Source: an uncultured Eubacteriales bacterium (GTDB taxonomy: Bacteria; Bacillota; Clostridia; Oscillospirales; Acutalibacteraceae). From it: 36,781 bases of DNA. Both the position numbers and the translations under genes were made by a program. Positions 11,604 to 29,550 of this stretch are shown here, piece by piece. The DNA lies in assembly GCA_900315815.1 (NCBI GenBank), contig ONAS01000008.1, forward strand, positions 1-36,781. Direction: 5' to 3'. The notes beneath the pieces are model-generated. The model saw nothing but the letters and a program-made list of their open reading frames with translations. It was not told the DNA's origin and did no database searches. Within the stretch, counting starts at the first letter, position 1, and each line of letters begins with the position of its first letter.

Positions 11604-12872
11604 TTATCGGGTCGTCCCGCATGGCTCAGATTGCCACAGAGTCCCCATGATCCGTTTCAGTTTCCCGCCTGACATTTTCTGCGGGTTTTCGATCAGACAG
11701 ATCCCCATATCCTTGGCGCGCTGTCTGATATAGCCCGCTCTCCGACTGTTTTTTCCCATCGCGGACGTGATCAGCGCCTTTTTCACGTATTTTCCGCCGA
11801 ACCGCGACGCGACGGAGTCGAGCTTGTACAGCTCGTCGATTTCAAAGCTCCCGTTTTTGCAGGATACAAATACGGGGATCATCTCGTGCATCATCAGCAC
11901 GTCGATCTCGTTATGGGTATCATAGAAGCCCTTTTGTGTGTGGACGTCGCCGTCCCAATCGATATAGGCGCCGTTGACGACGTCGTTGTAAACGGGATCG
12001 CCGTCGTCGCCGATCGCTTCCATCGCGGCGGTCGTGACGACCATTTCCAGGATCTGACCCGCCTTGGTCAGGCATTTCTTGATCTGACCGTTCTTGAAGG
12101 TCAGGACGATCCTATCGGCGGCAGAGGTGTCCGCGGTGATCAGCCCCAGCTTGACAAGACCGTTGATGATGCGCGGGATCATTTTATATTTTGTGCCGGC
12201 GGATTCCAGCAGCTTCTTCAGCGAGCCGATATCGGCGGTGCATTTCAGCGATTCGGAATGATTAAACCCGGCGATCGCCGCAAATATGCCGACCTGTGTG
12301 TTCCACATAGAGACGTCGATGCGGCAGATATCCCACATCGCCAGGATGTCCTTGCGGAAATCCTCTGTCCAGTCCCATCTGACCGTCGTGCCGCCGCGTT
12401 CGCTCTCAAATACCAGCGAGCCGCCGAACAGCATGATGTTCTCCTCGACGGTGAGCCGGGGCAGATTGTTGATGCTGATGAAGTTTCCGTCGTTGTCACA
12501 GTCATAGACGCGGTTATTGAGGATATTGAACCGGTGCAGCTGGAGATCCATGTCACGGTAGCGGTAGTATACGATGCCGGTCGCGACCAGAAACAGATCC
12601 CCGCCGCCGGTCAGGTCAAAAGCACAGTCTTCGTATTCCTCCACGATCCCGCAGAGCAGGTCGACGATCTCGCTGAGATTGTTTTTATCGACCTCCTCGC
12701 AGATGAATTCTATTTCAATGCCCCTGTTCAGAAACAGACGGCGATATCGTTCTGCGTGCGTTTTCAGCATTTGCTCGCTGTCTCCGATCAGGATGACCTT
12801 TTCCGGTGTTCCGGTGAGGCAGGCGCAGATATTCTCCGCTTCATTATTATCAAAAAACTCTATGTATGTCAT
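11604..12872 (-). CDS. CARF-domain DUF1887 nuclease, Card1/Can2-like
   Basis: A 422-residue protein. The N-terminal 140 residues form a CARF-type Rossmann region (KVILIGDSEQMLKTHAERY; the ligand loop AFDLTGGGDLFLVATG). The middle is likely winged-helix. The C-terminus is a PD-(D/E)xK-like nuclease with NEIDVLMMHEMIPVFVSCKN, where the Asp and Lys are visible but the usual acidic residue two before Lys is Ser. Card1/Can2 enzymes are switched on by cyclic oligoadenylate from type III CRISPR complexes and cut DNA or RNA; here no CRISPR or cas gene is in view. The ATG at 12872 follows GGAGG closely; an upstream ATG at 12902 lacks support. It leads an operon with the RyR membrane protein and diverges from the RyR/DUF4062 operon. 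Family assignment is strong; activator and target are unknown. Confidence 0.87.
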   Translation of the reverse strand: MTYIEFFDNNEAENICACLTGTPEKVILIGDSEQMLKTHAERYRRLFLNRGIEIEFICEEVDKNNLSEIVDLLCGIVEEYEDCAFDLTGGGDLFLVATGIVYYRYRDMDLQLHRFNILNNRVYDCDNDGNFISINNLPRLTVEENIMLFGGSLVFESERGGTTVRWDWTEDFRKDILAMWDICRIDVSMWNTQVGIFAAIAGFNHSESLKCTADIGSLKKLLESAGTKYKMIPRIINGLVKLGLITADTSAADRIVLTFKNGQIKKCLTKAGQILEMVVTTAAMEAIGDDGDPVYNDVVNGAYIDWDGDVHTQKGFYDTHNEIDVLMMHEMIPVFVSCKNGSFEIDELYKLDSVASRFGGKYVKKALITSAMGKNSRRAGYIRQRAKDMGICLIENPQKMSGGKLKRIMGTLWQSEPCGTTR

Positions 12873-12913
12873 GATTCCTCCGCACAAGCGGGCCAACCGC
12901 ATAATCTATGCCG

Positions 12914-13476: not shown

Positions 13477-14526
13477 GTGAAACGATATACCGCCTTTATC
13501 TCTTCCACCTATGCAGATCTTGTCCGCGAGCGGTCGGAGGTGATCGACGCTTTGATGGACAGCAATATCATCCCTGTCTGTATGGAGCATTTTACCGCGT
13601 CCTCCTCCGAGTGCTTTCACAAGCTGGAAAAGCTGATCGATACATCCGATCTGTTCATCCTGATCCTGGGCGACAGATACGGTACCTGCGGCGATGACGG
13701 GATCAGTATTACGGAAAAAGAATTCCGTTATGCCCGGAAAAACCACAGTTTGTATTTTGTTCTCAGGACAAAAAGCCACAGGGATCTGCTCAGACGCAGC
13801 GACGACGGCGAAGAGCTGACCGAGGACGAGCAGAAAATGGTGAAGTTCGGGGAAAGCATCACCGATCTTTGTCAGGATATCTCAACGCGTATGCCGATCT
13901 CCAAGATCATCGCGCAGCTGGTCGGATCCACAGATTTCGACCAGCTCAAGGGATGGTATCGCGAAACAAAAGAAGATCTCGAAAAATGGGAGAGGGCAAA
14001 TACGCGGTATCGTCTGGAGGGAACATGGTATCATGTGCACCTCAAGCAGCAGGACAAGAGCTATCTGCGTGTCGGTACCGTGGAGATCAAGCAGAACTTC
14101 AACCGGAACGAATACCGTCATCTGTTCTTTGAGGGACAGAATTACAGCGTTCAGGACGTGGATCACGAAAGCCACTGTCTGACATACAACTATGTGCAGA
14201 ATACCACATGGTCGGGCGAATACTTTTTGAAGAACGACCGCACGATCATGGGACTGTATAAGACCGTGCGCTATTTTGACGGGATGTTCTGTGATAAGAA
14301 CGTCGGAGAGGGCGCTTACTCAGGACTGCATGAATTCAGGGTGAAGAGCCTGGATCTTAACAGAGACGGCAAGCCGGACGGCAGCTACTTCATTGCGGGG
14401 AGCTTTCACGACATTTTCCCCACTCCTACCAAAACGGGACAGATCTTCATGTTCCGTACTCCCGAAGAAAGATATGAATTCCTCATGAAATTTTACAAGG
14501 ACATTTTGGAGGGCGCGCAAAAATGA
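13477..14526 (+). CDS. DUF4062 protein with an unrecognised C-terminal domain
   Basis: The N-terminal 100 residues match DUF4062 (PF13271): YTAFISSTYADLVRERSEV, then ECFHKLEKLIDTSDLFILIL and GDRYGT. This is a Rossmann-like fold related to TIR and SLOG modules and is often fused to NLR/STAND or other conflict effectors. A helical linker (about 100-180) leads to a beta-rich domain (about 185-345) containing RLEGTWYHVHLKQQDKSYLR, LDLNRDGKPDGSYFIAG and GQIFMFRTPEERYEFL, which I cannot assign. The start is GTG at 13477, 8 bp after AAAGGAG; the ATG at 13475 is out of frame and stops at once. The stop overlaps the ATG of the phosphatase gene (ATGA), so the two are coupled. It lacks the usual long effector region, so it is probably a sensor or adaptor. 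Confidence 0.82.
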   Translation: MKRYTAFISSTYADLVRERSEVIDALMDSNIIPVCMEHFTASSSECFHKLEKLIDTSDLFILILGDRYGTCGDDGISITEKEFRYARKNHSLYFVLRTKSHRDLLRRSDDGEELTEDEQKMVKFGESITDLCQDISTRMPISKIIAQLVGSTDFDQLKGWYRETKEDLEKWERANTRYRLEGTWYHVHLKQQDKSYLRVGTVEIKQNFNRNEYRHLFFEGQNYSVQDVDHESHCLTYNYVQNTTWSGEYFLKNDRTIMGLYKTVRYFDGMFCDKNVGEGAYSGLHEFRVKSLDLNRDGKPDGSYFIAGSFHDIFPTPTKTGQIFMFRTPEERYEFLMKFYKDILEGAQK

Positions 14527-15515: not shown

Positions 15516-15545
15516 TTGACTGATTCGTGCAATATGTGATATAAT
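15516..15545 (+). promoter_or_regulatory. Promoter of the vWA/tubulin operon
   Basis: TTGACT (15516-15521) and TATAAT (15540-15545, preceded by GTGA) are 18 bp apart. Spacing and the GTGATATAAT block match the CARF operon promoter. The leader before the start at 15607 is about 55 nt. Confidence 0.85.
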
Positions 15546-15606
15546 TTTTAACGTGGGTTTCTGTATCGATCAGCAGATTGCCCAAAAAGCGAAAGGATGG
15601 GGGCTT

Positions 15607-18300
15607 ATGAAAAAAACGATAGCGATCGCGCTGTCGCTGTTGCTGGTTTGCAGCTCATTGGCGATGATGCTTGTGCTGCCTGCACACGCGGAATCTTTGT
15701 ATATCAGAAAGATCGTTTCTGTCGTATATGACGATTCCGGAAGTATGGAGGATGACAACAAGTGGTCGTTCGCCAATTATGCCATGCAGGCCTTCTGCGG
15801 GATGCTGAACAGCGAGGACAAGCTATTCATCACGTATATGAGCGACGCATGGGCGTATGATGAAGCCGTAAAACAAAATAACGAAAACTCTCAGTTCTAC
15901 AACGAGGATCCGTCGGATACGCCGTTTGAGCCTCAGGAAATGAATCTGTCCTCCGGCGGCATCCAGAATTCCGTCGACAGCATCCATTATCACACCAACA
16001 CGGCGTCGACGCCGTTCAGCTCAGTCAAATATGCTTATGACAAGCTGCAGAGCGTCGAAGACTCCAATCCCAATACGCAATACTGGCTGGTAGTCATCAC
16101 GGACGGAGATTTTGATGAGATCAAGGATGAGCAGTTCGGAGAAACCCCCGAACAGGCGAAGGAGCGGAAAAAGGAATTCCTGAATGAATCGATGGAGAAG
16201 TTTCTCGGCACAGAAATGAAGAATCAGTCGCGTCCGCAGGTCACCTTCCTCACGATCGGCAATAACGTCATTCCTCCCGATGAGGATACACAAAAAGGTC
16301 TGTATACCTTCCACGCGGCGGACGCAAACGAGATCACAGAGGCAATGTCGAGTATGGCGGACCGCATTTCCGGACGGACGCGTCTGCAGAAACAGGACAT
16401 CACTCAGGTGGACGACACGACCGTTCAGGTCTCGTCCTCTATCCCGCTTCTGAATATCGCCGTGTTCTCTCAGAACTCGGACGCTGTCGTCACGAGCGCC
16501 GCATACGGCAACGAGATGGATATCCCCGTTACCCGCAAGGCAGATCTGGCATATCCTCTGCCCGGCGGGGATCTGTACGGCAGCGCGGTGCTGCTCGGCG
16601 ATTCGCAGAAGGTGATCGGCGCCGGCACCTATACCATCACCTTTGATAAAAAGATCAGCCTTGAGGACGTTGTCGTTCTGTTTGAACCGGCGCTGGAAAT
16701 GCGGGTGTCGGTGACCCTCAACGGCAGGGAGATCGCGTCCAAGAATGAGTTGTCGGATGCCAGTGTCGGCGACAGGATCGCCGCCTCTTGCAAGATCTAC
16801 GAAATGGGCACCGATACAGAGGTCGATCCGTCGCTGCTGCCTCCCGGGACGGGATTCGATATCACACTGAGGCAGAACGGCGATGTTGTCCGTCACACCG
16901 ACAGTAAGGAAATGAAGATCGACGAGTACGAGCTGCAGGACGCGGATACGAACCTGCACGCCGCCGTTTCGATCGAGGGCTTCAATCCGATCGAGTACAA
17001 CGCGGATTTTCATCCCAAGGACAAGCCCGACGTCGTGACTGTTTCCGCAGATTATCTGAATCAGACCAAGAGCATCAAGCTGGATCAACTCGCTTCCAAC
17101 AGTGAGCTTGCGATCAGCTTTACGATATCCCTCAACGGGGAAAGGATCACCGACCCCGACGAGGTCAAGGCGTATCATCCCGTGATCAGCACGTCTGTGC
17201 CGGATAACGACGGCGACGTCACCTATTCGGATGGCGGCAGAATCATTTTCACGCCGCGATACGCAGGCGGCTATGAGGGAGGCGCCGACAGCTTTGACGT
17301 TACCGTTACCTGTACGCTGGATAACGGTGAGAGCGCCGGGCTGACATACACGGTCCTGATCTCCGATTACGCGGTGATCCCTATCGACGCGGAGGACGCG
17401 GTCCGCAAAACCGAATTTTACGAAAATCAGATCGGTGCGTCGTTTTATATTCTGAAGGACGGCGTCCGCCTCGGCAAATCACAGGTGGAAAAGGACATTT
17501 CCGTCAGCCTCAACGAGCCGTACGCAAAGCTGAAAACAAAGATCTCCGTCGCGGACGACGGACTGATCACCGTGGTTCCGTATGACGAGGAGGAGCACGA
17601 GATCAACTTCGGCAGCTGGTGGGGCAACTGGTGGTACTACTGGTTCGAGCTGAGCAATGACGACGTCGTCATCACGCTGCAGCATCCGTACGGTACCGCT
17701 GACGCGAAAATCAAGGTGACAGGAGCGACAACAGAGTACCTGATCCGGTGCGTCTGGCTTCCCTTGGCGGTCGAGATCTTCCTGTTGATCTGGCTGCTGT
17801 TCATTTTGATCAAGCCGAAGTTCAAGGGCGGATCCCTGTATGTCGGCTATCTGCTGTACGATGAAGTAAGACATCTCCATATCCTCAGCGACTTTAACGA
17901 GTACAGGCTGAGAAAATTCAGGAGAAAAGGATTGTTCAGTCCCAAGCCGGTAGCAAAGAAGGTCAACGTCGGCGGGATCATGGTCCGCGCAGCCTATAAG
18001 GGCAGGATCATCGTGGAATCGCCGACTCCCTGGTACAGGGATACGATCAATCCTTATGATATCAATCAGCCGCTCAATACGCCCGCGGACATCTGCGACT
18101 ATCTGATGACCCAGACAATGGACAACAGCATCCCGATCAGGGAGATCCGTACCGATAACGTCGTCCCTGAGGACAATCGGTACCTTGACCATCAGTATGA
18201 GCAGCCGCTGGAATATACGGTCATTTCGACAACGGGAGAACCGAGCGAGATCAACGGCAGATTGGTAATTGAATCAGGTTGGATATTTATCTATCAGTAA
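15607..18300 (+). CDS. Membrane-anchored von Willebrand A-domain protein
   Basis: An 897-residue exported protein. A signal peptide (MKKTIAIALSLLLVCSSLAM, ending near AHA-E) is followed by a vWA domain with the metal-ion-dependent adhesion site YDDSGSM (D42, S44, S46) and the later Asp in ITDGDFDE (D166). Extracellular beta-sandwich-like regions run to about 700, with a Trp/Tyr-rich patch (GSWWGNWWYYWFELS) just before the membrane. One helix (about 715-736, LPLAVEIFLLIWLLFILI) crosses the membrane and leaves a cytoplasmic tail of about 160 residues (SLYVGYLLYDEVRHLHILSD). The geometry would link an outside ligand to the tubulin-like protein encoded next. The start is set by the signal peptide; an in-frame start at 15553 lacks support. 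Similar vWA-transmembrane genes neighbour FtsZ-like genes elsewhere. Confidence 0.87.
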   Translation: MKKTIAIALSLLLVCSSLAMMLVLPAHAESLYIRKIVSVVYDDSGSMEDDNKWSFANYAMQAFCGMLNSEDKLFITYMSDAWAYDEAVKQNNENSQFYNEDPSDTPFEPQEMNLSSGGIQNSVDSIHYHTNTASTPFSSVKYAYDKLQSVEDSNPNTQYWLVVITDGDFDEIKDEQFGETPEQAKERKKEFLNESMEKFLGTEMKNQSRPQVTFLTIGNNVIPPDEDTQKGLYTFHAADANEITEAMSSMADRISGRTRLQKQDITQVDDTTVQVSSSIPLLNIAVFSQNSDAVVTSAAYGNEMDIPVTRKADLAYPLPGGDLYGSAVLLGDSQKVIGAGTYTITFDKKISLEDVVVLFEPALEMRVSVTLNGREIASKNELSDASVGDRIAASCKIYEMGTDTEVDPSLLPPGTGFDITLRQNGDVVRHTDSKEMKIDEYELQDADTNLHAAVSIEGFNPIEYNADFHPKDKPDVVTVSADYLNQTKSIKLDQLASNSELAISFTISLNGERITDPDEVKAYHPVISTSVPDNDGDVTYSDGGRIIFTPRYAGGYEGGADSFDVTVTCTLDNGESAGLTYTVLISDYAVIPIDAEDAVRKTEFYENQIGASFYILKDGVRLGKSQVEKDISVSLNEPYAKLKTKISVADDGLITVVPYDEEEHEINFGSWWGNWWYYWFELSNDDVVITLQHPYGTADAKIKVTGATTEYLIRCVWLPLAVEIFLLIWLLFILIKPKFKGGSLYVGYLLYDEVRHLHILSDFNEYRLRKFRRKGLFSPKPVAKKVNVGGIMVRAAYKGRIIVESPTPWYRDTINPYDINQPLNTPADICDYLMTQTMDNSIPIREIRTDNVVPEDNRYLDHQYEQPLEYTVISTTGEPSEINGRLVIESGWIFIYQ

Positions 18301-18345
18301 TGAAAGATAACGGAATAAATCTATCAACAAAATCGGAGGAAAACA

Positions 18346-21300
18346 ATGGCACAATCATTATTAATCGGCTTAGGCGGCACCGGCAGCAGAGTAGTCAACG
18401 AAGTTGCCAGAGAGCTGACCAAAAACGGAAAAAGCTTCAACGACGGGTTGGGACAGATATGTCTTGCGGTATTGGACAGCAACACAAACGATAATAAGAG
18501 CATTATTGAAAGCAAAACGGGCGTGCCGGTGTATGAGATCAGCAAACCGAAAAAGATCGAGGGTTATCTGAACGATTACAATCACCTGGATATGCTGAGA
18601 TGGTGTCCCGATTCTCCTTCCTTCAGAAAGGAGAGCATGACCGACGGCTGCTCGGAGATACGTGTCAAATCCAGGATCGCTTTCATGGATTGTTATGAAT
18701 CCGGCGTGACCCGTGATCTTCAGATGAAGCTCAACGAGATCCTGAAGTTCAACGACAAATCGAAAATCAGGATCATGGTCGTTTCGTCGCTTTGCGGCGG
18801 TACCGGCTCCGGTATGTTTATCCAGATGGCGCTCTGGCTGCGTCAGATCCTTGCGCAGAGCGAGATCTCTATCCGCGGTATTTTCCTGATGCCCGACATT
18901 TTTATCGAGAACCTCGAGGATATCCGGAAAAATCCCTCTACCCAGGTGCGTCACTACGCCAATGCTTACGCGGCGATCCGCGAGCTGAACACCATCACCA
19001 AGCTGAGAAAAGAAACGGGCAGCCTCAAGCTTTCCGAGCGGATCGTGCTGGACAAGCTGTTTGACAGCAAATCCAATGTCGGCAAGGGCTCGCCGGTATA
19101 CGATTTCGCGTTCTTTGTCGATAATCAGGACGAGAACGGCATCCGTCTGAACAGCATGGCGGAATATGAGAGAATGGTCGCCCAGCTGGTCTATATGCAG
19201 CTGTATGCGCCGATGGAAAGCGAAATGAAATCCGAGGAGGACAACACCTACGACAAGTATCGCAGCAGCCCCGAGCCCCTCTACGGTTCCTGCGGTACCT
19301 CAAAGGCGGTCTATCCGGTGGAAAGCGTCAAGATGTACTGCACTATCCGCGCGACCCAGGACAGCCTGTCCGGCAGCTGGAGAAGGATCGACGATGAAGT
19401 CGACGCGCTGAAGGAAGAAAGAGAGCGGAATGAATCCACCTACGGTTTCGATACCCGCTATGAGTATGTCAAGTTCTTTGAGGAAAAGGTCCATGAGGAT
19501 CCGGACAAAGCAGGCTCCGATCACTTCCTGATCTCTCTGGTCGATGATATCAGAAATACCAAGCTTGAGAAAGGCTCTGACAATCAGATGCACAAGGTCC
19601 ACACCGACAGGATCGGCGATTTTGTCAGCGCGATCAAAACATCCTTGATTGATACCTCCGTCCATGCACACGGCGGATATCACACCATCAAGCTGGACAG
19701 CGGTACGTTTTTGAAAAACACCAACGACAGCGTTGAAAAGATGCTGGCGCTGGTCAAGAACAAGGACCTTGCGATCGAAAGGGCGGTCAAAGACTTTACG
19801 GATCACGCCAAGGAATACGCGAGAGAAGTTGTCAACAAGGTCTTCACGTACAGCATGGGAGACGTCAAAGCGTCAAACGCAGAATCCGTTTACGGTCTGT
19901 TCTCCAGGGTGAACGAAGACGGCGAACGCCTCTTTATCCATCCTGTTTCCGCAAGATATCTGCTGTATAAGCTGTATGCAGCGCTCAAGGATATGAAAAA
20001 CCGGTGCAATCCCGAAAGCGCCAAGGCGACTGCCCTCAAAAAGGAAGTTTCCAATTCCGATATCGATTACCCCTGGTCCTTTACGAAAACAGAGAAGAGC
20101 CCCACGGAATATCTGATGAGCCGCAAGAAGGTGCATCCCGAACAGGATTTCGTGATGGGATTCAAGAAAAAGTATCTGCCGTACCTGACAAAGAGAGTCG
20201 ACCTTGTCGAAACCTATGAAAAAGAATTCCTGCAGCAGCTTGTTTACGAAGAGCTGATGTCCAGAGTCAAGGATCTGTACGAACAGTTTGAAGCCTTTTT
20301 CAAGACCCTGCCGGATACCAGGGACGCTCTCAATAACAAGCTTGAGGAGAATGTCATTGCCGATCAGGATGACAAGGTCATCTATGTTTTCAGCAAAAGA
20401 AAGGATAGAGAAGGCGTCTATCAGTCACTGGATCTGAAGCTGGATTCCAGCGACAGTGCGATCAATCAAAGCGTCATCAACGCCGCGTACGGTATCGTAT
20501 GCGCAAACGCCAGACCGAAGAACGAGCTGAATATGCCGTATGCAAACTACAGTATTGCTTCGGGCTTTGTCAGAGAATCGCTGAAAACCTTCAGAGAGCG
20601 GATCGAAAATGACGAACAGAACGCGGCCAACGTCGAGATGGATATCTATACCGCGATCTGTAAAGAAAGCGATATCGCGGCGATGGAGGAAGAGGACGAA
20701 AACAAAAAGAAGAACAAACTCAAAAACAATATGCTGGATGATATCGACTTCAAGACCGGCAAGCAGATCGATACCGGCGTTTCTGTCAGAGAAAGACACA
20801 GAGTGGCATTCAAGAGCTACAAAGACCGTCTGTTCTCAAAGGCGGCGCCGTACCTCGTCCTTTCACCGGAACCGACACAGGGTAAATTCGGTTCAAGGAC
20901 CATGCATCCGAAAACGTTCTGGGGCTTCCATCCCAGACTGACGCAGGCATATAACGGCGTAGGCGCAGAGCTGGGCACAAATGAGGAGATCGCTCAGAAG
21001 GACGCATACCCGTTCAACGAGCTTTACTGCTATCGTGCCGTTTACGGTCTGAAGGCCGTGTATATCCCGAAGTTTGTGGAAACGGAGGACGGAGTATATT
21101 ACGCCGCTTACCGCGAGATCGTCGACAAGATGATCGCGGACTGTGAAAACGACGGAAACGAATACGCTCTCGCCAGCACGCCGCATCTGGACAAATACTG
21201 GCACAAGTACCTGCCGTATATCACCCCGGATATGCAGCAGCAGGGCGATACCGATTTCAGCCTCGGCATCCTGCTGGCGCTGGCTTACGGTCAGCTCAAG

Positions 21301-21891
21301 CTGGATAAGCAGGGCTGCTTCGTGATCCGCAGAGCGATCGATACCGGCTTCGGTACCCCTGTCAACAAGGACGTCCCCATTCTTTACAAGGATAAGCCCG
21401 TCAAGAGCACAGACGTCAAGGGCTTGATCGACGCCCTCAAGAAGGACGAGGTGTTCTCGAACATCGACATCCCCGCCCTGAAAAAGAAGTACGAGAAGGA
21501 TCTTGATGATCTGGTGACCTACGAAGGCACCGACGTCTTCAAGGGTCTGACCGGCAGAGGCGAGGACTTCAAGCCCGTGACCGTCATCATTCGGTATAAC
21601 GAGGCGCTCGGACACGACTTTTATATTACCGCCGGACTGATCGGCGCGCTGGAAAAGATCGCGTCCGATCTGGCTGAGCATTACAACATGGTCCGTTCCG
21701 ACGAACAGATCGAAAAAGCCAAATTCAGGATTTGCAGAAGATTCTATGATTCCAGCAAGCGTATCGCCGGCAGAGAGAATCTCTTTGACGTATGGGAAGA
21801 AAAGTTCAAAGAGTTCGATATCAGGAAAGAAGCGCCCAAGTCATCCTCCCCAAAAAGCGCTTCCGGCAGCGGCTCTGCCGACAAAAAATAA
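18346..21891 (+). CDS. Large tubulin/FtsZ-like GTPase (Tubulin_2 type)
   Basis: An 1181-residue cytoplasmic protein. The N-terminus begins with the nucleotide loop LLIGLGGTGSRVVNEVA, and the tubulin signature follows at SSLCGGTGSGMF (residues 147-158), equivalent to the FtsZ G-box. Family members bind GTP and may polymerise. FtsZ is about 350-400 residues, so roughly 800 residues here are extra; they are largely helical and charged, with a Lys/Glu-rich stretch (EEEDENKKKNKLKNN, about 785-800) and a Ser-rich end. FtsZ-like families of this kind have been predicted to remodel membranes, usually beside vWA-transmembrane genes, as here. RBS GGAGG lies 6 bp before the ATG, 45 bp after the vWA stop. 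It is not the division FtsZ: the sequence is far diverged and there are no division genes nearby. Confidence 0.87.
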   Translation: MAQSLLIGLGGTGSRVVNEVARELTKNGKSFNDGLGQICLAVLDSNTNDNKSIIESKTGVPVYEISKPKKIEGYLNDYNHLDMLRWCPDSPSFRKESMTDGCSEIRVKSRIAFMDCYESGVTRDLQMKLNEILKFNDKSKIRIMVVSSLCGGTGSGMFIQMALWLRQILAQSEISIRGIFLMPDIFIENLEDIRKNPSTQVRHYANAYAAIRELNTITKLRKETGSLKLSERIVLDKLFDSKSNVGKGSPVYDFAFFVDNQDENGIRLNSMAEYERMVAQLVYMQLYAPMESEMKSEEDNTYDKYRSSPEPLYGSCGTSKAVYPVESVKMYCTIRATQDSLSGSWRRIDDEVDALKEERERNESTYGFDTRYEYVKFFEEKVHEDPDKAGSDHFLISLVDDIRNTKLEKGSDNQMHKVHTDRIGDFVSAIKTSLIDTSVHAHGGYHTIKLDSGTFLKNTNDSVEKMLALVKNKDLAIERAVKDFTDHAKEYAREVVNKVFTYSMGDVKASNAESVYGLFSRVNEDGERLFIHPVSARYLLYKLYAALKDMKNRCNPESAKATALKKEVSNSDIDYPWSFTKTEKSPTEYLMSRKKVHPEQDFVMGFKKKYLPYLTKRVDLVETYEKEFLQQLVYEELMSRVKDLYEQFEAFFKTLPDTRDALNNKLEENVIADQDDKVIYVFSKRKDREGVYQSLDLKLDSSDSAINQSVINAAYGIVCANARPKNELNMPYANYSIASGFVRESLKTFRERIENDEQNAANVEMDIYTAICKESDIAAMEEEDENKKKNKLKNNMLDDIDFKTGKQIDTGVSVRERHRVAFKSYKDRLFSKAAPYLVLSPEPTQGKFGSRTMHPKTFWGFHPRLTQAYNGVGAELGTNEEIAQKDAYPFNELYCYRAVYGLKAVYIPKFVETEDGVYYAAYREIVDKMIADCENDGNEYALASTPHLDKYWHKYLPYITPDMQQQGDTDFSLGILLALAYGQLKLDKQGCFVIRRAIDTGFGTPVNKDVPILYKDKPVKSTDVKGLIDALKKDEVFSNIDIPALKKKYEKDLDDLVTYEGTDVFKGLTGRGEDFKPVTVIIRYNEALGHDFYITAGLIGALEKIASDLAEHYNMVRSDEQIEKAKFRICRRFYDSSKRIAGRENLFDVWEEKFKEFDIRKEAPKSSSPKSASGSGSADKK

Positions 21892-21901
21892 TTGATCCGA
21901 T

Positions 21902-21933
21902 GCCTGAAGGCGCTCACGCGAGCGCCTTCAGGC
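21902..21933 (+). other. Intercistronic hairpin in the tubulin operon
   Basis: A perfect 14-bp stem, GCCTGAAGGCGCTC with its complement, closes a 4-nt ACGC loop, 10 nt after the tubulin stop. No T-run follows, so it should not terminate efficiently. It may protect the upstream mRNA end or lower downstream expression. The next start at 21961 has AAGGGGG upstream. Confidence 0.75.
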
Positions 21934-21960
21934 GACTGCCTTGACAAGGGGGCATCGTAT

Positions 21961-24201
21961 ATGCATACATTTTTTATCAATACCTCCAAAAAGGATCTGA
22001 GCGTCTATGACGTTCTCTTTGAGATCCATTATGAGAGAAAATCGATGATATCGCTGGCCTGCCCGATGGACAAATGGGATGATCCCGAAAAGGGATACAA
22101 GGTCTGTGTGGAGAAAATGCGTGAGATGATCGAAGGCTTTGTAGAGCTGACCGACGCCTACAATCTGATCGTTTATATCGATCTGGCGGAAAACGAGGAT
22201 TACGCATCTATCCCGAGAGGCGAGGAATACGACAGACAGCGTGAAGCTTACTGTCGCGCTATGTATATACTATACACTCGTGTCATCAATTCGACGATCG
22301 TCGACACCCTGGACAGAGCAGGCAGCAAGCCCCGCAATATCCTGCTGATGTTCGGTCAGGAAAAAGCGTTTCTGGATGAATTCAAGACAAAGGATGACGC
22401 AAAAGAAACAGAGGTCAGGGACCGGCTGTTCGGCTGTCTCGGTCTTCCCGATGAAAAGGCTGTCAAAAAAGTCAAATTCGGTTCGGACGGCAAAAAGCTG
22501 GAGGATCAGAGCCTTTTTGAAAAAGAGATCGCCAAGCTGTACGGCGAAGAGCTGATCCCCGGGATCCGGTTATGCTATCAGAACGAGCTGGAGCTTTGGA
22601 TGGGTGAACTCTACAACCGCTCGGATCTCAACGCCGCGCAGGAGTATCTGTTCAGAAAAATCAAAGAAACATATTCTGCTGAGAAGGGAAAAAACGGGGT
22701 GGAGATGGTATCCTGCCCGTATGATTGCGAGGCCTCAAAGGTCAACAAAAGAGTTATGGCGCTCACCCGTCTGAACATCGCTCTGCACGTTTACAAATGC
22801 GTGGAAAACAATTCGATCTACGAGGTCAGTGCGGCTGAAAGCAGCGTTTCGGTCGCTCCCTATTATTCCTATACGGCCGAAGAGATCGCGCCGCTGCTGC
22901 TCAGCAAAAAGGATCAGTACACCGAAAAGGATAAGGAGCTCGGATCATTGGAGTCCACCTATTCGAAGCTGAAGCTTGCGCCGAAGCCTAGGGTGTTCGA
23001 TCACAACAAATTCCATCTTGATGAATACGGCGGGAGAAAGATCAAGCTGGTCGTCAGCGATGTGCCGCCTCAGGAGAAAAATCCCGATCAGACCGACGCG
23101 CAGAAGGACAAGCATCACGACGTCGTGAAAGGCAAGGGAAACACCAAAAAGGTGGAGGCTGTTTACGCAAAGGGCGAGTCTCTGTTCAAGGCTGATGAAT
23201 TCCGGCTTTTTGACAGCACCTTTGAGTATAACGGCGACGCTATGCTTGACAGAGATACAAAGCCGGATGAATTCATCGAGCAGGCGTACTGCGTCAGGAT
23301 GCATCATATCAACTATCTGAAAAAGCTGAAGATCCATATCAAAAACGCGCTTTCCAATTATGCGGGAAACTCAAAGGACAACAAAGCCGCCCTGCTTCAG
23401 ATGGGCCGCTATCGTTATGAAAAGGGAGACCACACCGATCAAGAAACCGATCAGGCGGCGATCCTCGAAACCAGAGAAGGTGTTGCCGAGCAGGCTTACA
23501 ATACCGTGATGCGGCAGTATATGGAATTCAATGCAAGCAGGAACATCGAGATCACGGACATCGAGGAACAGTGCGATTGGTTCGTAAACAGAGTGGACCA
23601 GATCACCGAGAGCCTGAAACGGCTGAAGCTGGTCGCGGTAGGCGTGCTTGCCGGAATCGTCCTGCTGTACCTTCCTTTCCTGATCCTGCAGTTTGAGTCG
23701 ATCGTGCGCAATGTCATCACGGTCGCCGTTGCCGCCGCGTCGTTTTTGGTCCCGGTCGGGATGCTGTACGCAATTTTCGGCTATGCGGTAAGAAAACAAA
23801 AGGACAGATATGTCGAAGCGTGGAAGGAATTCAAGAAAAAATCCGATGAAGCGCTGATGAACAATACCCGCGCCGCGCAGATGTATGACGAGCTGCTGTG
23901 CTTCGTGACGCCCTCGCTCCGCTGGGTATATGAATACCGGCTGGATATCGCGTACGCCGCAGAATGCTGCAGTGTCGCCGACGCGAAGATCAATCATCAT
24001 AAGATGAAGATCCGGGAACGCATCGAGGCGATCGACAATATCCTCGGCGATCTGGAATATGTGAGATCAAAGGTAAAACGCGATCAGAAAAACAGCACGC
24101 CCGGCAGTATCGACTATTCGGTGCCGTTCTGCACAGGCGAGGATAATCAGAAATTCTATTCTGTTGTCGACCTGAACAGGCTGACACGGCGTAAGGCGTA
24201 A
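21961..24201 (+). CDS. Unknown protein with two membrane helices, tubulin-operon partner
   Basis: A 746-residue protein I cannot assign to a family. The ATG at 21961 follows AAGGGGG; the frame is open to 21892 but that stretch is the hairpin. The N-terminal part has alternating strands and helices (MHTFFINTSKKDLSVYDVLF, NLIVYIDLAENEDY). A charged, probably disordered linker lies near 375-405 (QEKNPDQTDAQKDKHHD). Two membrane helices lie near 557-577 (LVAVGVLAGIVLLYLPFLI) and 582-606, followed by a long helical, likely coiled-coil tail (KDRYVEAWKEFKKKSDEALM, KMKIRERIEAIDNILGDLE). With no signal peptide, both long ends are probably cytoplasmic. It may anchor the tubulin-like polymer to the membrane. 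Its stop lies 13 bp before the next start. Confidence 0.78.
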   Translation: MHTFFINTSKKDLSVYDVLFEIHYERKSMISLACPMDKWDDPEKGYKVCVEKMREMIEGFVELTDAYNLIVYIDLAENEDYASIPRGEEYDRQREAYCRAMYILYTRVINSTIVDTLDRAGSKPRNILLMFGQEKAFLDEFKTKDDAKETEVRDRLFGCLGLPDEKAVKKVKFGSDGKKLEDQSLFEKEIAKLYGEELIPGIRLCYQNELELWMGELYNRSDLNAAQEYLFRKIKETYSAEKGKNGVEMVSCPYDCEASKVNKRVMALTRLNIALHVYKCVENNSIYEVSAAESSVSVAPYYSYTAEEIAPLLLSKKDQYTEKDKELGSLESTYSKLKLAPKPRVFDHNKFHLDEYGGRKIKLVVSDVPPQEKNPDQTDAQKDKHHDVVKGKGNTKKVEAVYAKGESLFKADEFRLFDSTFEYNGDAMLDRDTKPDEFIEQAYCVRMHHINYLKKLKIHIKNALSNYAGNSKDNKAALLQMGRYRYEKGDHTDQETDQAAILETREGVAEQAYNTVMRQYMEFNASRNIEITDIEEQCDWFVNRVDQITESLKRLKLVAVGVLAGIVLLYLPFLILQFESIVRNVITVAVAAASFLVPVGMLYAIFGYAVRKQKDRYVEAWKEFKKKSDEALMNNTRAAQMYDELLCFVTPSLRWVYEYRLDIAYAAECCSVADAKINHHKMKIRERIEAIDNILGDLEYVRSKVKRDQKNSTPGSIDYSVPFCTGEDNQKFYSVVDLNRLTRRKA

Positions 24202-24214
24202 AGGAGGCGGAGGT

Positions 24215-27200
24215 ATGACTTTTTTGACCGGTTTACTGAAGATCCTCTTTATCATCGCCACGATCCTTTTGATGGCGGCGCCGCTTGCGATGGAGTTTCT
24301 GACCTTCCGTCGGGACAAGATCAAAAAGATCAGCTACAAACGTTTCAGGATCATCGTATATACCTTTATTTATATCATTGCCGTAACGATCGGGCTGTAT
24401 CTGCTCAAGGAAATATACCTGTGGGTGGAATCCCTTCCGTTCGTTCAGTGGATCTCGCAGAAAATCGCCTTCAGCGTGCGCCTCACCTATTGCGCGAAGG
24501 TGCTGGCCGCGATCCTGATCAACTTTGCCATCGGCATAATGTATGTAATTTTCAGCAAGTTTGTCAGGATCGGCCTGAAAAAGAAGAATCTGCTGAAGCC
24601 CAAAAAGAAAAACAAAGAGCTTGATTGGCGGCAGAAGCTGGAGCGCGGGATCATCCGCTTCTTCTGCACCGAAACATGGTTTTTCGTCGGCAGGATCGTC
24701 AAGGTTTTGAGCATCGGTCTTTCCGTCTTTTACGCCGCTGTCTTCGTCCTGTACCAGATCCCGGCGCTGTTCGGACTGAAATGGACCCCGTATCACTTCA
24801 TTTCGATGCTGTTTGAATCGGGGTATATCTTCCCCGTGATCACGCTGTTGGCGCTTTGGGAGATCAGCTTCTTCCTCGAAGGCATCAGACAGGTGGCTGA
24901 CGAATGTCCTGAGCTGCTCAGGGATGAAAAGAAAACCGTCAAGGTGACGGAGCCGGATCTGGAGGCGATCGACGAAGAGGTCCGCAAGCAGTTCGGCGAT
25001 TATTACGCGTGTGATGCGGATATGTCCTCCATGGTCCATGTGGAGATCGCCTCGACCGACCGTGATCCGATCACGGAATTGATCGGCAAAGCGGTAGAGA
25101 ACGATCAGCGCAATCCTCTTGTGAAAAACGAAGTCTATCTGGACGGGATCGACAAGCTGATTACCGGCAAGAAAGGCATCCTGATCAACGGCAATTTCTT
25201 TTCCGGCTTTTCGATGTATTTTCTGCGGTATCTGTCCGCGATCATCGCGCGCGGCGATAACGCGGTATTCGTATGCAACGATGACAGGCAGATCGATGAG
25301 GTATACAGCTTCATCACTCACGGATTTGAGCAGATATCCAGCCTGTACTGCAAGGATTTCCGGCAGGACGCCATCGATTTTGACGAGCCGATCTGGCGCG
25401 TTATCAAGGTCAGCGGAGAACACAGCGTGCTGGAGGAAGCGTCGGTCGATGAGAACAACATTCTTGTCACCTCGCTCGGATATCTGTGTTCCGACCGCTT
25501 TGAAGCGGAACGCAGTGCATTTATCGCGCTGGTTGATGTCGTTGTTTTTGTCGACGCGCTCAATACGGTCAATCAGTTCAACCGTCAGCTTGCCATGCTG
25601 AATACCCGCATCAAGAACCTGACCGCCAAGAATTCCCTGAAAGTCAAAAACAACGATTCGGACAATATCGACGAGAACGTTTATGTCTTCAGATATTTGT
25701 CACGTCAGGTACAGTATATCTGCTTTGACGATACCAGAACGCCCGGTCTGGATAAGGTGCTGAAAAATCTGCTGTCCGTCGACTTTGAGTCGGTCGACAT
25801 CATGAACTATCATCCGAAGACGCTGGTACGCTGCTATCGCTATGAGGGCAAGCCGGATGAGAACGGCGAGAGGATCTGTCCGCATTTTGTCAATACGGAG
25901 GAAGAGCTGGGAGCCGTCATCAATATGGCGATCCTGTGCCTTGCCAAGGGCGCGTCCAATGTCACCGTATTTACGGACAACGCTATCCCGTACGGGAATT
26001 TTGCGGAATCCATCGCGGCGAACTCCGGTCAGATCAACGTTAAGGTGGATTCGGATAAGATCCGGCTGAACAAGCCGTTCTGGAACCCCGGGGATTATTC
26101 AGTGATCATCGCGGTGGACTCGAGGGACAATCTTCCTGCCGCGGTCAGAAAATACTCCGCTCTGGTAACGGAAAAGCCGACGCTGGTCATCATCTTTTCC
26201 CGTCCTTATCTGATGCGCGATTATTATCTTGCCAATATCGGCGATGTGCTGAATAACCAGCTGGAAAGGATCCCCGTTGAGGAGGAGACCAATAAGGATA
26301 TCGCCCAGCGGATCCTGATAAAGGCGAACGAGGGCGGCATCTCTACGGACGAGGTCTTGCGGCTGGTGAACGGACTGCCGGGCTTTGAAAAGTACGTCGA
26401 CAGCAGGGATGTCAGCGGCATTCTGCTCAAGATCATCGGCATCTATGACGAACAGCAGGACGCGTCGCAGATCGATAAAACATATCTGTACAAATGCTTT
26501 GAATTCATCTCGACGCAGGTCTTCGATGATAACGGAAAATACGCTTCTCTGGACAAGATCATCCTCCGTCGGGAAGGCAGACTGTTCGACAAGATCAACA
26601 GCCGCGACATGATCGTGATGACGAAGGGTGACGCCGAGGTGATACTCCCGCTGCCGCGTTCCAGAATCACACAAAATTATATCGCCGGTCAGAATCTGCT
26701 TTATAACGGCGAAATCTATTATATCCAGAAGATCAATACCGAGGCCGGCAAGATCTTTGCGCGGCTGGCTGTCGGCGGTAAAAACGATGAAGCATATCGG
26801 TATGTTCAGGTGCGCAGATATAACCTGCAGTTCAACGCCGAGACAGAGACCGTGTTCCCCGCCAAGCACGTTGTTTTGGGGCGTTCGGGTGACAGCGTCA
26901 CCGTCAGCGACGTATATATTTCCGTATTCCGCACCCCGATGGAGGCAGTGACAAAGGGCTACTATGAGGTCGATCCGCACTCGCTGTCTGTCAACGTCGA
27001 AACGAACGCGTATCACAGCATCGACGACCCCGGCAACGATGTGCTGGCGAAACAGACCTACCGCATCTACGGCAAAGAGTTCGATAATCCGACCTATTCC
27101 ACGGAAGAGATCATGAAAGTCACCCAGCTGAACCGCAAAATCAACGGAGCCTTGATGATGTCGCTGCGGATCTGCGGTCAGTTCGGTGAGGATACCGATA

Positions 27201-29452
27201 AAGCCGCAGCGCTTGCCGCGGCAATGCTCAACGAGCTGTTCCGCTCGATGTTCCCGTCGGTAGCGGATTCCGTCGCTGTCTGTCCGATACTGCATCAGAC
27301 GCCGGATGACGAGGAATCGCAGCTGGTTCTCCGGACGCTGCCGCAAATCGCGTATTCGGGCGAGACCGACCTGATCTCTCAAGAGGATTTCGATCTCGTG
27401 ATCATCGAGGACTGCGCGGCGGATCTGGGCGTCGTATCCATGCTGATGTCTGCCGGCGACGACATGCTCAAGCTGCTTTTCGGGCCCGTTTTCAAATACC
27501 TTGAATGGTATCTCAACGCGGGCGAAAAGAGCGATTATCTGTATTACGGACTGGATCATGAGCCGGCATGCTTTGATTTCAATTCCCTGTATCAGCTGTC
27601 CGAGCTTCTCGGCAGCGGCAGCTATCAAATGAGCTTTATGGATATCGGCACCATCGCGGAATACTATGTCTGCGACTTCTGCGGAAAGCATTATTCCGAC
27701 AGTACGGATGTTGTCGAGCTGGATGACGGCAGAAAGATGTGCAGAGAATGCGCCGAGCACCTTATGGGCAACAACAAGAAGTATCTCAGATCGGCGCTTG
27801 CTCACGCCAGGATGTTCCTGGAGAGCAACTACGGGATCAAGCTGGATGACGATTATGAATTCTGCTTCGAGTCCACGGTTAAGATCATCAATACGCTCAA
27901 GATGAATCCCGGTCTTGCGGGACGCGGTTCCGATATCCCGCTGAAATCCTACGTGGGCGATAAAAAGAAGGTTCACCTCGAATATGACCTTCCGTCCGCC
28001 AGTCTCGGCGAGCTTCTTGTGCGCGAGCTGACGCATACATGGCAGCTCAAGCATCTGCCTGAGCTGGAGGAGGAGCTTGCCGAAGGTCACATCGCGCTGG
28101 TTTCGGTCCAGTATCTGAGGTACCTTAACCTGAATGCGATCCTTGCGGCACGGACGTCCTACTACGAAAGCACGGGCAATATCTCCGGCGTCGGCTACAG
28201 ACGGCTGGTCAAGGAACTGCTGAATCATCCGGAATACCGGAACAACCCGTTCCGGTATCTGGCAGAGATCGCCGGATCGGTGGTTGTGGACGAGGTCATT
28301 CCCCCGAAAAAGAAAGACCCGGTGGGAGAATACGGACTGCCCTATAAGGCGCAGAAGCCCGACAGGACAAAAGACTCAAAGAGCGTGTATTTTTACCGTT
28401 CCAGGCTGTCCGAAAAGAGCGGAAAGCTGTATGACGATCTCGTTTCGGCGATCGGAAGCTTTGCGCCGACCGTGGAAGCGCCCGACTTTACGATCGATGA
28501 GGTCGGGGACATTCTGCTTTTGATCCAATATGACCATCCCGAGCTGTTCTGGTGTAACTACGGCTGTTCGATGACCGGCAGTACCGTCAGTCTGGGCTAC
28601 TGCGCAGCTGCCGGCGAAGCGGCGAATCTGCAAAAACGGATCGACGAGGCGGCGGCAGAGTATCTTAACGGCATCGATGATTCCATGAGCGCGTATGACG
28701 TCGCTCTGCGTCTGCACGTCAAGCTGATCTCCAAGGTCGATTATGATACTCTTACGCTGCAAAAGGAGAAGGACGGCAGTTACTCCTCCGACAAAATCGA
28801 CTATATCAGAACGATCTGCGGCGTATTTCTGGACGGTAAGGCGGTTTGCGCCGGATACAGCCGCGCGATGGAATATATGCTGCAGAAATGCGGTATCGAA
28901 TGCACCTATGTCGCCGGCGTCTGCAAAAAGCCGTCGGGAGAGCCGGGGGGTCCCGGTGACAGGCACGCATGGATCGTCCTCAAGGTGGACGGTGACTATT
29001 ATTATCTCGACACTACATGGGACGACAGCTCCAGTACCGTTCAGGTGGTCAAAAACTACGATCTGAGCTTTGATTACTTCTGCGTCACAGAGGAAGAGCT
29101 GATGAGAACGCGCACGATCGAAAAGCATCACGATCAGTTCCCGACCTGTACGGCGACGCGTGCGAATTATTTCAGCCACAACGATCTGGTCATCCAGACA
29201 TACGATCCCGAAAAGCTGAAGACCATTGCCCGTACAGCCGCGGAGAGCGGTCAGAAGGAGTTCCGTTTCAAGTGCTCCTCCAAGGCGCTCTTTGATCAGA
29301 TGATCGGCAGGTTCGGCGCTGTCAGCGATAACTGCTATTCAGAGATCGTTCGCTATGCCGCCAAGGGCAACAAGCGCATCCGAGGCGACTACTACCATTA
29401 TGACAGAGACACCCATCTCTGGACCATCACCGTCAGATTTGTGGAGAAATAA
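24215..29452 (+). CDS. Giant membrane protein: helicase-like region, zinc ribbon, degenerate DA1-like region, transglutaminase
   Basis: A 1745-residue protein. About five membrane helices fill the first 225 residues. A Rossmann/P-loop-like stretch follows (about 315-460: GKKGILINGNFFSGFSMYFL, VVVFVDALNTVNQFNRQLAM) that looks like a helicase fold without its Walker lysine, though GKKG remains; this is tentative. A zinc ribbon has C1153-x2-C1156 and C1176-x2-C1179. Next, LGELLVRELTHTWQL and EGHIALVSVQYL resemble the DA1 peptidase, but HExxH reads R1270-E-L-T-H1274 with E1290 downstream, so zinc catalysis is doubtful. The C-terminus is a transglutaminase-like domain with an intact triad: C1545 (GKAVCAGYSRAME), H1584 (RHAW) and D1599 (YYYLDTTW). 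AAAGGAGG precedes the start. It is the last gene of the operon and ends at a strong terminator. The active triad suggests protein cleavage or cross-linking at the inner membrane face. Confidence 0.82.
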   Translation: MTFLTGLLKILFIIATILLMAAPLAMEFLTFRRDKIKKISYKRFRIIVYTFIYIIAVTIGLYLLKEIYLWVESLPFVQWISQKIAFSVRLTYCAKVLAAILINFAIGIMYVIFSKFVRIGLKKKNLLKPKKKNKELDWRQKLERGIIRFFCTETWFFVGRIVKVLSIGLSVFYAAVFVLYQIPALFGLKWTPYHFISMLFESGYIFPVITLLALWEISFFLEGIRQVADECPELLRDEKKTVKVTEPDLEAIDEEVRKQFGDYYACDADMSSMVHVEIASTDRDPITELIGKAVENDQRNPLVKNEVYLDGIDKLITGKKGILINGNFFSGFSMYFLRYLSAIIARGDNAVFVCNDDRQIDEVYSFITHGFEQISSLYCKDFRQDAIDFDEPIWRVIKVSGEHSVLEEASVDENNILVTSLGYLCSDRFEAERSAFIALVDVVVFVDALNTVNQFNRQLAMLNTRIKNLTAKNSLKVKNNDSDNIDENVYVFRYLSRQVQYICFDDTRTPGLDKVLKNLLSVDFESVDIMNYHPKTLVRCYRYEGKPDENGERICPHFVNTEEELGAVINMAILCLAKGASNVTVFTDNAIPYGNFAESIAANSGQINVKVDSDKIRLNKPFWNPGDYSVIIAVDSRDNLPAAVRKYSALVTEKPTLVIIFSRPYLMRDYYLANIGDVLNNQLERIPVEEETNKDIAQRILIKANEGGISTDEVLRLVNGLPGFEKYVDSRDVSGILLKIIGIYDEQQDASQIDKTYLYKCFEFISTQVFDDNGKYASLDKIILRREGRLFDKINSRDMIVMTKGDAEVILPLPRSRITQNYIAGQNLLYNGEIYYIQKINTEAGKIFARLAVGGKNDEAYRYVQVRRYNLQFNAETETVFPAKHVVLGRSGDSVTVSDVYISVFRTPMEAVTKGYYEVDPHSLSVNVETNAYHSIDDPGNDVLAKQTYRIYGKEFDNPTYSTEEIMKVTQLNRKINGALMMSLRICGQFGEDTDKAAALAAAMLNELFRSMFPSVADSVAVCPILHQTPDDEESQLVLRTLPQIAYSGETDLISQEDFDLVIIEDCAADLGVVSMLMSAGDDMLKLLFGPVFKYLEWYLNAGEKSDYLYYGLDHEPACFDFNSLYQLSELLGSGSYQMSFMDIGTIAEYYVCDFCGKHYSDSTDVVELDDGRKMCRECAEHLMGNNKKYLRSALAHARMFLESNYGIKLDDDYEFCFESTVKIINTLKMNPGLAGRGSDIPLKSYVGDKKKVHLEYDLPSASLGELLVRELTHTWQLKHLPELEEELAEGHIALVSVQYLRYLNLNAILAARTSYYESTGNISGVGYRRLVKELLNHPEYRNNPFRYLAEIAGSVVVDEVIPPKKKDPVGEYGLPYKAQKPDRTKDSKSVYFYRSRLSEKSGKLYDDLVSAIGSFAPTVEAPDFTIDEVGDILLLIQYDHPELFWCNYGCSMTGSTVSLGYCAAAGEAANLQKRIDEAAAEYLNGIDDSMSAYDVALRLHVKLISKVDYDTLTLQKEKDGSYSSDKIDYIRTICGVFLDGKAVCAGYSRAMEYMLQKCGIECTYVAGVCKKPSGEPGGPGDRHAWIVLKVDGDYYYLDTTWDDSSSTVQVVKNYDLSFDYFCVTEEELMRTRTIEKHHDQFPTCTATRANYFSHNDLVIQTYDPEKLKTIARTAAESGQKEFRFKCSSKALFDQMIGRFGAVSDNCYSEIVRYAAKGNKRIRGDYYHYDRDTHLWTITVRFVEK

Positions 29453-29495
29453 CGGGACTGTACCGAACCGCTGATACTGAAAGCCAACAATCACA

Positions 29496-29550
29496 CAGCC
29501 GGCTTCGTCGTCATACGCAAAGGATATGACACGGAAGCCGGCTGCTTTTT
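29496..29550 (+). terminator. Terminator of the vWA/tubulin operon
   Basis: An 11-bp perfect stem, CAGCCGGCTTC (29496-29506) with GAAGCCGGCTG (29534-29544), is extended by an inner GTCATA/TATGAC stem and followed by CTTTTT. It isolates the operon from suf. Confidence 0.9.

What the first reader, a model, noticed from the sequence alone, without database searches (positions are those of the whole stretch)
15516..29550. Four-gene tubulin / vWA / membrane / transglutaminase operon as a candidate membrane-remodelling machine
One strong promoter and one strong terminator bracket four tightly spaced genes: an exported vWA protein with one membrane helix and a cytoplasmic tail, an 1181-residue tubulin-like GTPase, an unknown protein with two membrane helices, and a 1745-residue multi-pass protein with an active-looking transglutaminase triad. 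FtsZ-like families beside vWA-transmembrane genes have been predicted to remodel membranes (established as prediction). The two large partners are not described to my knowledge. The set reads as outside sensor, cytosolic polymer, membrane anchor and membrane-bound enzyme.
Basis: partly seen in the sequence, partly recalled or inferred. Interest (0 to 1): 0.85.

Follow-up and report, generated by a model that had tools for sequence, protein, structure and literature searches.

The report
Tubulin operon with dead membrane helicase
A set of four bacterial genes that stays together in distantly related bacteria joins a tubulin-like protein, an outward-facing sensor-like protein and a membrane-tethered protein built like a broken helicase that carries protein-processing enzymes; what it does is unknown, but its parts now make it testable.

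Summary
The four genes are real and conserved as a block. Starting from the tubulin-like gene, 16 of 18 other genomes of its family and order keep four genes in the same order. Starting from the largest gene, 61 of 80 loci hold all four; 18 of the other 19 end at a contig edge and one lacks genes 1 and 2. Gene 2 belongs to the known FtsZl1/Tubulin_2 family. The new result is gene 4: a homologue's core is modelled with the fold of the DUF1998/YprA helicase MrfA (Foldseek E 2.6e-24), without the ATPase motifs, behind about five membrane helices, followed by a zinc-finger/zincin module (dead in the window) and an optional transglutaminase. 'Membrane remodelling' is tested by nothing here. A variable island with a CARF nuclease, a recurrent channel-like neighbour and the defence role of YprA helicases lean towards an immune-type sensor-effector complex; a TIR-gene control showed no enrichment. 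New variant of a known kind (FtsZl1-vWA operons), with a core partner I found described in no listed paper.

The parts
15516..15545 (+). sigma-70-like promoter, 11 of 12 matches, extended -10
15610..18300 (+). gene 1: exported vWA protein, 896 aa (ORF opens at GTG 15553); signal segment 4-22, MIDAS residues, one helix 716-734, 162-residue cytoplasmic tail
   Evidence: profile without the window and its two nearest relatives scores it E 3.3e-49
18346..21891 (+). gene 2: FtsZl1/Tubulin_2 GTPase, 1181 aa; Tubulin_2 domain residues 5-340
   Evidence: PF13809 2.8e-48, PF00091 2.7e-4; glycines of both GTP loops invariant in 28 of 28
21902..21933 (+). 14-bp hairpin between genes 2 and 3, no T-run
21961..24201 (+). 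gene 3 ('mid'): 746 aa, membrane hairpin at residues about 557-610 followed by a helical C-terminal part
   Evidence: homologue model; profile-profile match of the hairpin region to other mids
24215..29452 (+). gene 4 ('big'): 1745 aa multi-pass pseudo-helicase with zinc finger, zincin-like and transglutaminase domains
24233..24883 (+). gene 4 membrane helices (about five, residues 7-223)
   Evidence: hydropathy
25034..27532 (+). gene 4 core, residues 274-1106: YprA/MrfA-like fold without Walker A and DExH motifs
   Evidence: fold of homologue L104; homology of the window to that family E 3.8e-35 without the window in the profile; motif comparison
27671..27751 (+). gene 4 four-cysteine finger, C1153/C1156/C1176/C1179
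   Evidence: invariant in 16 of 16
27980..28213 (+). gene 4 zincin-like module; HELTH is RELTH here, so probably inactive
   Evidence: weak Pfam DA1-like match
28682..29011 (+). gene 4 transglutaminase core, residues 1490-1599
   Evidence: PF01841 5.8e-7, above its cut-off; PDB chain 9crn_A E 9.9e-13; triad kept in window, G107 and G264
29496..29550 (+). terminator-like hairpin and T-run

Best explanation
The operon encodes one membrane-bound sensor-effector complex of the biological-conflict (immune) type. SHOWN by sequence or prediction: an outside vWA domain with an intact metal site on a one-helix stalk; a cytosolic FtsZl1/Tubulin_2 GTPase with intact GTP-binding loops; a protein with a two-helix membrane hairpin; a multi-pass protein whose soluble part has a YprA/MrfA-type helicase fold without ATPase motifs, followed by a zinc finger and zincin module and, in some lineages, a transglutaminase; strict co-conservation of the four. 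INFERRED: the vWA domain and/or the dead helicase binds a trigger (an outside ligand, or nucleic acid or protein inside); the tubulin-like GTPase assembles on the membrane through the hairpin protein and the vWA tail; assembly switches on the attached protein-processing enzyme. In most lineages that enzyme would be the zincin; in the window's lineage the zincin is dead and the transglutaminase takes its place.
For: Four-gene block kept in 16 of 18 genomes and 61 of 80 loci, in a patchy spread: gene 2 in 14 of 197 order genomes, gene 4 core in 4 of 291 class genomes. Gene 4 core has the MrfA/YprA fold, a family that PMC12458937 describes as central to several antiviral systems. Enzyme modules are exchanged: separate peptidase genes in 11 loci and separate transglutaminase genes in 8 loci; all 6 of 16 homologues with a lost HExxH carry the transglutaminase, against 4 of the 10 with it intact. 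The window block lies in a variable 20.4-kb stretch, 4.7 kb in one same-genus genome, next to a CARF nuclease (5.3e-32). Channel-like family C0 co-occurs with gene 2 in 9 of 14 carriers against 4 of 183 others. Tubulin plus vWA genes occur in published predicted conflict systems (PMC7159879 section 29).
Against: No functional data. TIR genes are not enriched near the block: 2 of 59 lie within 20 kb, about 1.3 expected (by hand). PADLOC has no model for the four proteins beyond a weak chance-like Csn2 match. Of the 9 carriers with C0, it is beside the block in only 2 of the places that one search lists, and one of the 9 (G225) has no four-gene block. MrfA itself is, to my knowledge, a DNA-repair helicase. 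Kinship was not corrected for in any count. The window's immediate downstream neighbours (SufC/SufB-like) look like housekeeping genes.
Confidence: 0.42

Rival explanations
1. Membrane-remodelling or vesicle machine (first reader; Makarova and Koonin 2010): a tubulin-like polymer bends or partitions membrane, the hairpin protein anchors it, and the enzymes process envelope or partner proteins. No immune role.
For: Published prediction for FtsZl1-vWA operons; three of four proteins have membrane segments; the mid homologue model is a long helical hairpin protein, with only insignificant fold hits to pore toxins and a dynamin pair.
Against: No known membrane-shaping domain found; the fold hits of mid are not significant (best E 0.054); a dead helicase with peptidase and transglutaminase is not expected from this reading; patchy spread.
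Confidence: 0.25
2. Envelope or protein-processing/secretion system: the complex senses the cell surface by vWA and cuts, links or moves proteins at the inner face, with the tubulin-like protein and, in one clade, an FtsK-like ATPase supplying energy.
For: Zincin motif intact in 10 of 16 homologues found through gene 2; FtsK/SpoIIIE-like gene directly after gene 4 in 8 loci (one representative scanned); lipoprotein-like gene after gene 4 in 8 loci; separate transglutaminases have N-terminal hydrophobic segments, 8 of 8.
Against: No conserved substrate gene; the FtsK-like neighbour is limited to 8 of 80 loci; the peptidase is dead in the window's lineage.
Confidence: 0.18
3. Ordinary FtsZl1 operon whose lineage-specific partners are already among the unnamed associated families of the 2010 paper, so nothing beyond a known prediction.
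For: PMC2875224 reports lineage-specific, membrane-containing partners and families A1-A2, B1-B9.
Against: The parts read (1 and 2 of 5) name no helicase fold, peptidase or transglutaminase among them.
Confidence: 0.15

Closest known systems
FtsZl1 (Pfam Tubulin_2) and vWA operons, Makarova and Koonin 2010 (PMC2875224)
   Same: Tubulin_2 gene beside a vWA gene with signal and membrane segments; membrane-bearing partners
   Different: No OmpA, kinase or P-loop GTPase partner found in the scanned genes; here a fixed four-gene block with a pseudo-helicase partner
GAP1-N2 GTPase-centred conflict systems with tubulin and vWA (PMC7159879, section 29)
   Same: Tubulin protein with long C-terminal part, extracellular vWA with membrane helix, found in firmicutes and actinobacteria
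   Different: No GAP1 or GTPase gene recognised in the block or the ten flanking window genes scanned; gene 4 type not mentioned in the passages read
YprA/MrfA (DUF1998) helicases and their antiviral systems (DISARM, Druantia, Dpd, ARMADA; PMC12458937)
   Same: Overall fold of the gene 4 core
   Different: Walker A and DExH lost; membrane helices; fused to peptidase/transglutaminase rather than nuclease; that paper's main text has no tubulin, vWA, transglutaminase or metallopeptidase
DA1 (LIM finger plus peptidase) and other zincins (Pfam DA1-like, DUF6782, BSP)
   Same: Four-cysteine finger followed by HExxH and a downstream EG in most homologues
   Different: Only sub-threshold profile matches; attached to a pseudo-helicase; LIM architecture of DA1 is recalled

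Membership tests
FtsZl1 / Tubulin_2 | Match to PF13809 above cut-off | tested here: met
   2.8e-48, 165 bits against cut-off 27; 28 of 28 members match
FtsZl1 / Tubulin_2 | Signature GTP-binding glycine loops | tested here: met
   GxGGxG and GGTGxG glycines invariant in 28 of 28
FtsZl1 / Tubulin_2 | GTP-dependent polymer formation | not testable with these tools
   needs purified protein; the 2010 paper could not place T6-H7 elements in this family
FtsZl1-vWA operon | vWA gene with MIDAS next to the FtsZl1 gene | tested here: met
YprA/MrfA helicase | RecA1-RecA2-OB-CON-DUF1998 fold | tested here: met
   whole-length Foldseek match of homologue L104, E 2.6e-24, TM 0.55 by target, rmsd 11.4; the window's own core was not modelled
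YprA/MrfA helicase | Walker A and DExH ATPase motifs | tested here: not met
   TPTASGK(S/T) faces NNPFYxDL and DExH faces EPSx; window GNFFSG and DAL
YprA/MrfA helicase | MZB/DUF1998 (PF09369) sequence match | tested here: not met
   no PF09369 match in own genome nor in Pfam scans of gene 4 and 8 homologous proteins
GAP1-N2 tubulin systems | GAP1 and GTPase genes in the neighbourhood | tested here: not met
   not seen by Pfam in the four proteins or ten flanking window proteins; other loci only by ten representatives
Zincin metallopeptidase | HExxH plus downstream Glu | tested here: not met
   window has RELTH; intact in 10 of 16 homologues found through gene 2
Transglutaminase-like superfamily | Core domain with Cys-His-Asp | tested here: met
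   PF01841 above cut-off; triad in 3 of 3 of the window's subfamily; activity untested
Known anti-phage systems (PADLOC 2023) | Match of the four proteins to a system's core proteins | tested here: not met
   only a weak Csn2 match, E 0.0018, of gene 3's helical part

The most novel reading that the evidence does not exclude
A new class of immune system in which a tubulin-superfamily polymer, controlled from outside by a vWA receptor and from inside by a membrane-anchored, ATPase-dead YprA-type helicase used as a nucleic-acid or protein sensor, switches on an attached protease or transglutaminase. To my knowledge no such union of a tubulin-like protein and a pseudo-helicase in one membrane machine is known.
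Probability: 0.3. Interest if true: 0.93.

Novelty: new variant of a known kind. Interest (0 to 1): 0.75.

Why it matters
FtsZl1/Tubulin_2 proteins are bacterial tubulin relatives whose role was a prediction in 2010 and, in the papers listed by my searches, still is. For one branch this defines a compact, conserved four-gene set with recognisable folds in the partners, so function becomes directly testable in isolates that carry it (Pseudoflavonifractor sp. An44, Butyrivibrio sp. FCS014, Leucobacter salsicius M1-8; titles, blocks). It also extends the YprA helicase fold, known from DNA repair and antiviral systems, to a membrane-anchored, ATPase-dead form joined to protein-processing enzymes.

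Tried and rejected
Rejected: the transglutaminase as the point of gene 4 (absent in 6 of 16). Rejected: gene 4 as an active helicase. Tested and not supported: TIR genes enriched round the block. Weak and not used: SLATT match of gene 3 (E about 0.02), Csn2 match, pore-toxin-like hits of the mid model. The first genome scan, with the window's gene 2, confirmed no relative. A sequence profile of the gene 4 core finds no convincing PDB relative. Gene 3: a profile of 46 distant mids without the window finds no match at E 10; only profile-profile comparison supports homology, over the hairpin region (91-97% against 1.3% and 0.2% for two controls); the other proteins of the controls are unrelated families. 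The RyR-like label for family C0 is a recalled motif seen by a script; Pfam did not report it. The class census used a profile that includes the window. The 80 loci were found with the peptidase motif, so they are biased to keep it. In some searches ORFs were picked greedily by length, which hides some genes (the tubulin genes of G234 and G196, seen).

Full report
What is there. The window is a whole contig (C95) of a 2.38-Mb genome in 142 contigs. Equal contig lengths tie sister genomes of its order to Pseudoflavonifractor sp. An44 and to a 'Ruminococcus' MAG; the order is probably Oscillospirales (my inference). Four same-strand genes lie at 15610-18300, 18346-21891, 21961-24201 and 24215-29452, with gaps of 45, 69 and 13 nt, behind a promoter-like site and before a strong terminator-like hairpin.

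Gene 1 is an exported vWA protein: signal segment, MIDAS residues invariant in 24 of 24 aligned proteins, one membrane helix, 162-residue tail. Pfam finds no vWA in the window copy, but VWA_2 in 6 and VWA in 4 of 24 members. Gene 2 is an FtsZl1/Tubulin_2 protein (PF13809, 2.8e-48; 28 of 28 members match). No structure was predicted for it. Gene 3 has a membrane hairpin; the model of a homologue (pLDDT 87.2, pTM 0.65) has no significant fold match (best E 0.054).

Gene 4. Sixteen homologues align over membrane helices, a long core, a four-cysteine finger and a zincin-like region. The core of homologue L104 (1110 aa; 52-row alignment including the window at 18% identity) was modelled with pLDDT 87.0 and pTM 0.84. 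The first four PDB hits by Foldseek are the DUF1998 helicase MrfA, E 2.6e-24 to 3.7e-12, followed by Hel308, Lhr and other SF2 helicases. A sequence profile finds no convincing PDB relative. hhalign to eight MZB-bearing helicases from the phylum gives a collinear but weak match (434 columns, E 0.0071, probability 5%); in it TPTASGK(S/T) faces NNPFYxDL and DExH faces EPSx. So the fold claim rests on the model of a homologue. The substituted sites are themselves nearly invariant (P94 51 of 52, F95 52, E193 50, P194 51, S195 51), which suggests reuse rather than decay; the window has changed most of them again. A profile without the window scores gene 4 at E 3.8e-35, in three pieces over residues 274-1333.

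Enzymes. HELTHxWQ is intact in 10 of 16 homologues found through gene 2 and lost in six, the window among them. All six carry the transglutaminase (the cut-off G264 copy was completed); 4 of the 10 intact ones do. Kinship is not corrected. Among the 80 loci, which are biased to keep the peptidase motif, the finger-peptidase module is a separate ORF in 11 (8 actinobacterial, 2 clostridial, 1 Treponema); the 8 checked have no membrane segment. A transglutaminase-like gene follows gene 4 as a separate gene in 8 loci (L102, L113, L116-L119, L137, L144), all with an N-terminal hydrophobic segment. In gene 4 itself no membrane segment follows residue 223 apart from a hydrophobic stretch inside the core at 434-452, and the K/R pattern puts the soluble part inside. 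So the stand-alone peptidases agree with a cytoplasmic place, but the stand-alone transglutaminases look exported, which conflicts with a cytoplasmic fused transglutaminase. I leave this open.

Conservation. Gene 2 matched in 6 of 150 family genomes and 14 of 197 order genomes, own genome counted in both: 18 other genomes. Sixteen have the four genes in order (14, two more as L087 and L088); in most of them gene 3 is recognised by place and size, BLAST finding it only in G107 and G264. G294 is split over contigs; G225 has only distant Tubulin_2 genes. G107 has a second, lone Tubulin_2. A scan with the gene 4 core found 127 relatives, 80 kept: mostly Clostridia, with Actinobacteria and one Treponema. 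Sixty-one hold all four on one strand in order; 18 of 19 others end at a contig edge; L125 has genes 3 and 4 and 6.9 kb upstream without genes 1 and 2. Distances between the four proteins correlate over 56 loci, r 0.66-0.90, permuted maximum 0.15; shared organism descent would also give this.

Context. Upstream in the window lie a C0-family protein (9359-11551; 30% identity over 351 aa, E 1.7e-31), a CARF nuclease (5.3e-32), DUF4062 and an inositol-phosphatase. Of 13 same-genus genomes searched, 5 have SufB; in one, FBPase and SufC are 4.7 kb apart with other genes between, against 20.4 kb in the window; in the other four no FBPase lay in the stretch fetched. Families C0 and C1 occur near the block in 19 of 80 loci each, an FtsK-like family directly after gene 4 in 8, two families whose representatives are TIR-LRR proteins in 6 and 4. 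Control: 17 carriers hold 59 TIR matches, 2 of them within 20 kb of the block, about 1.3 expected (by hand), so TIR proximity is no evidence. C0 co-occurs with gene 2 in 9 of 14 carriers against 4 of 183, but of the places listed only two (G234, G327) lie beside the block, one of the nine (G225) has no four-gene block, and the own genome's listed place is on another contig.

Literature. FtsZl1 plus vWA as predicted membrane remodelling: PMC2875224, parts 1 and 2 of 5 read. Tubulin plus vWA in GAP1-N2 conflict systems: PMC7159879, section 29 and passages. YprA helicases in defence: PMC12458937 (preprint), abstract, passages, sections 7 and 9. Tubulin_2 as sparse and divergent: PMC9871819, passages. 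PMC10067837, passages, not relevant. Ten searches list, among the rows shown, no title on this four-gene set; lists are capped and most subscription journals are missing.

Verdict. Membrane remodelling is possible but untested; a membrane sensor-effector complex of the conflict type fits the parts somewhat better, at modest confidence. The pseudo-helicase is the surprise.

Noticed in passing
window 11604-12902 (-): CARF plus PD-(D/E)xK nuclease, Card1-like (PADLOC 5.3e-32; Pfam PF09002 1.3e-5, just below cut-off); no CRISPR array or other CRISPR gene was looked for.
   Followed up: partly
window 9359-11551 (-): 730-aa multi-pass, Rossmann-like protein of family C0, with an E-H-R-R-W-N motif that recalls RyR domains (recalled label); relatives lie near the four-gene block in 19 of 80 loci.
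   Followed up: partly
window 13477-14526 (+): DUF4062 protein (1.7e-23) directly before an inositol-monophosphatase gene and the operon.
   Followed up: no
window 21902-21933: Perfect 14-bp hairpin between genes 2 and 3 without a T-run; may set the ratio of the genes on either side.
   Followed up: no
L122, L123, L124, L126, L128, L132, L135, L145: FtsK/SpoIIIE-like gene of about 1165-1194 aa (474 aa in L132) directly after gene 4 (L126 scanned).
   Followed up: no
L125:13029-22085: 3018-aa ORF right after a block that has genes 3 and 4 but not genes 1 and 2.
   Followed up: no
G000 genome-wide: The window's genome has 12 TIR-domain matches, more than any of the other 16 carriers searched.
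   Followed up: no
L075 (G225:C60) and L011 (G107:C32): Other, distant Tubulin_2 genes without the four-gene block; L075 carries two.
   Followed up: no
L153, L103, L107, L099, L078: Loci with both C0 and C1 channel-like families downstream of the block; C1's only Pfam hint is a sub-threshold Castor/Pollux match of one representative.
   Followed up: no
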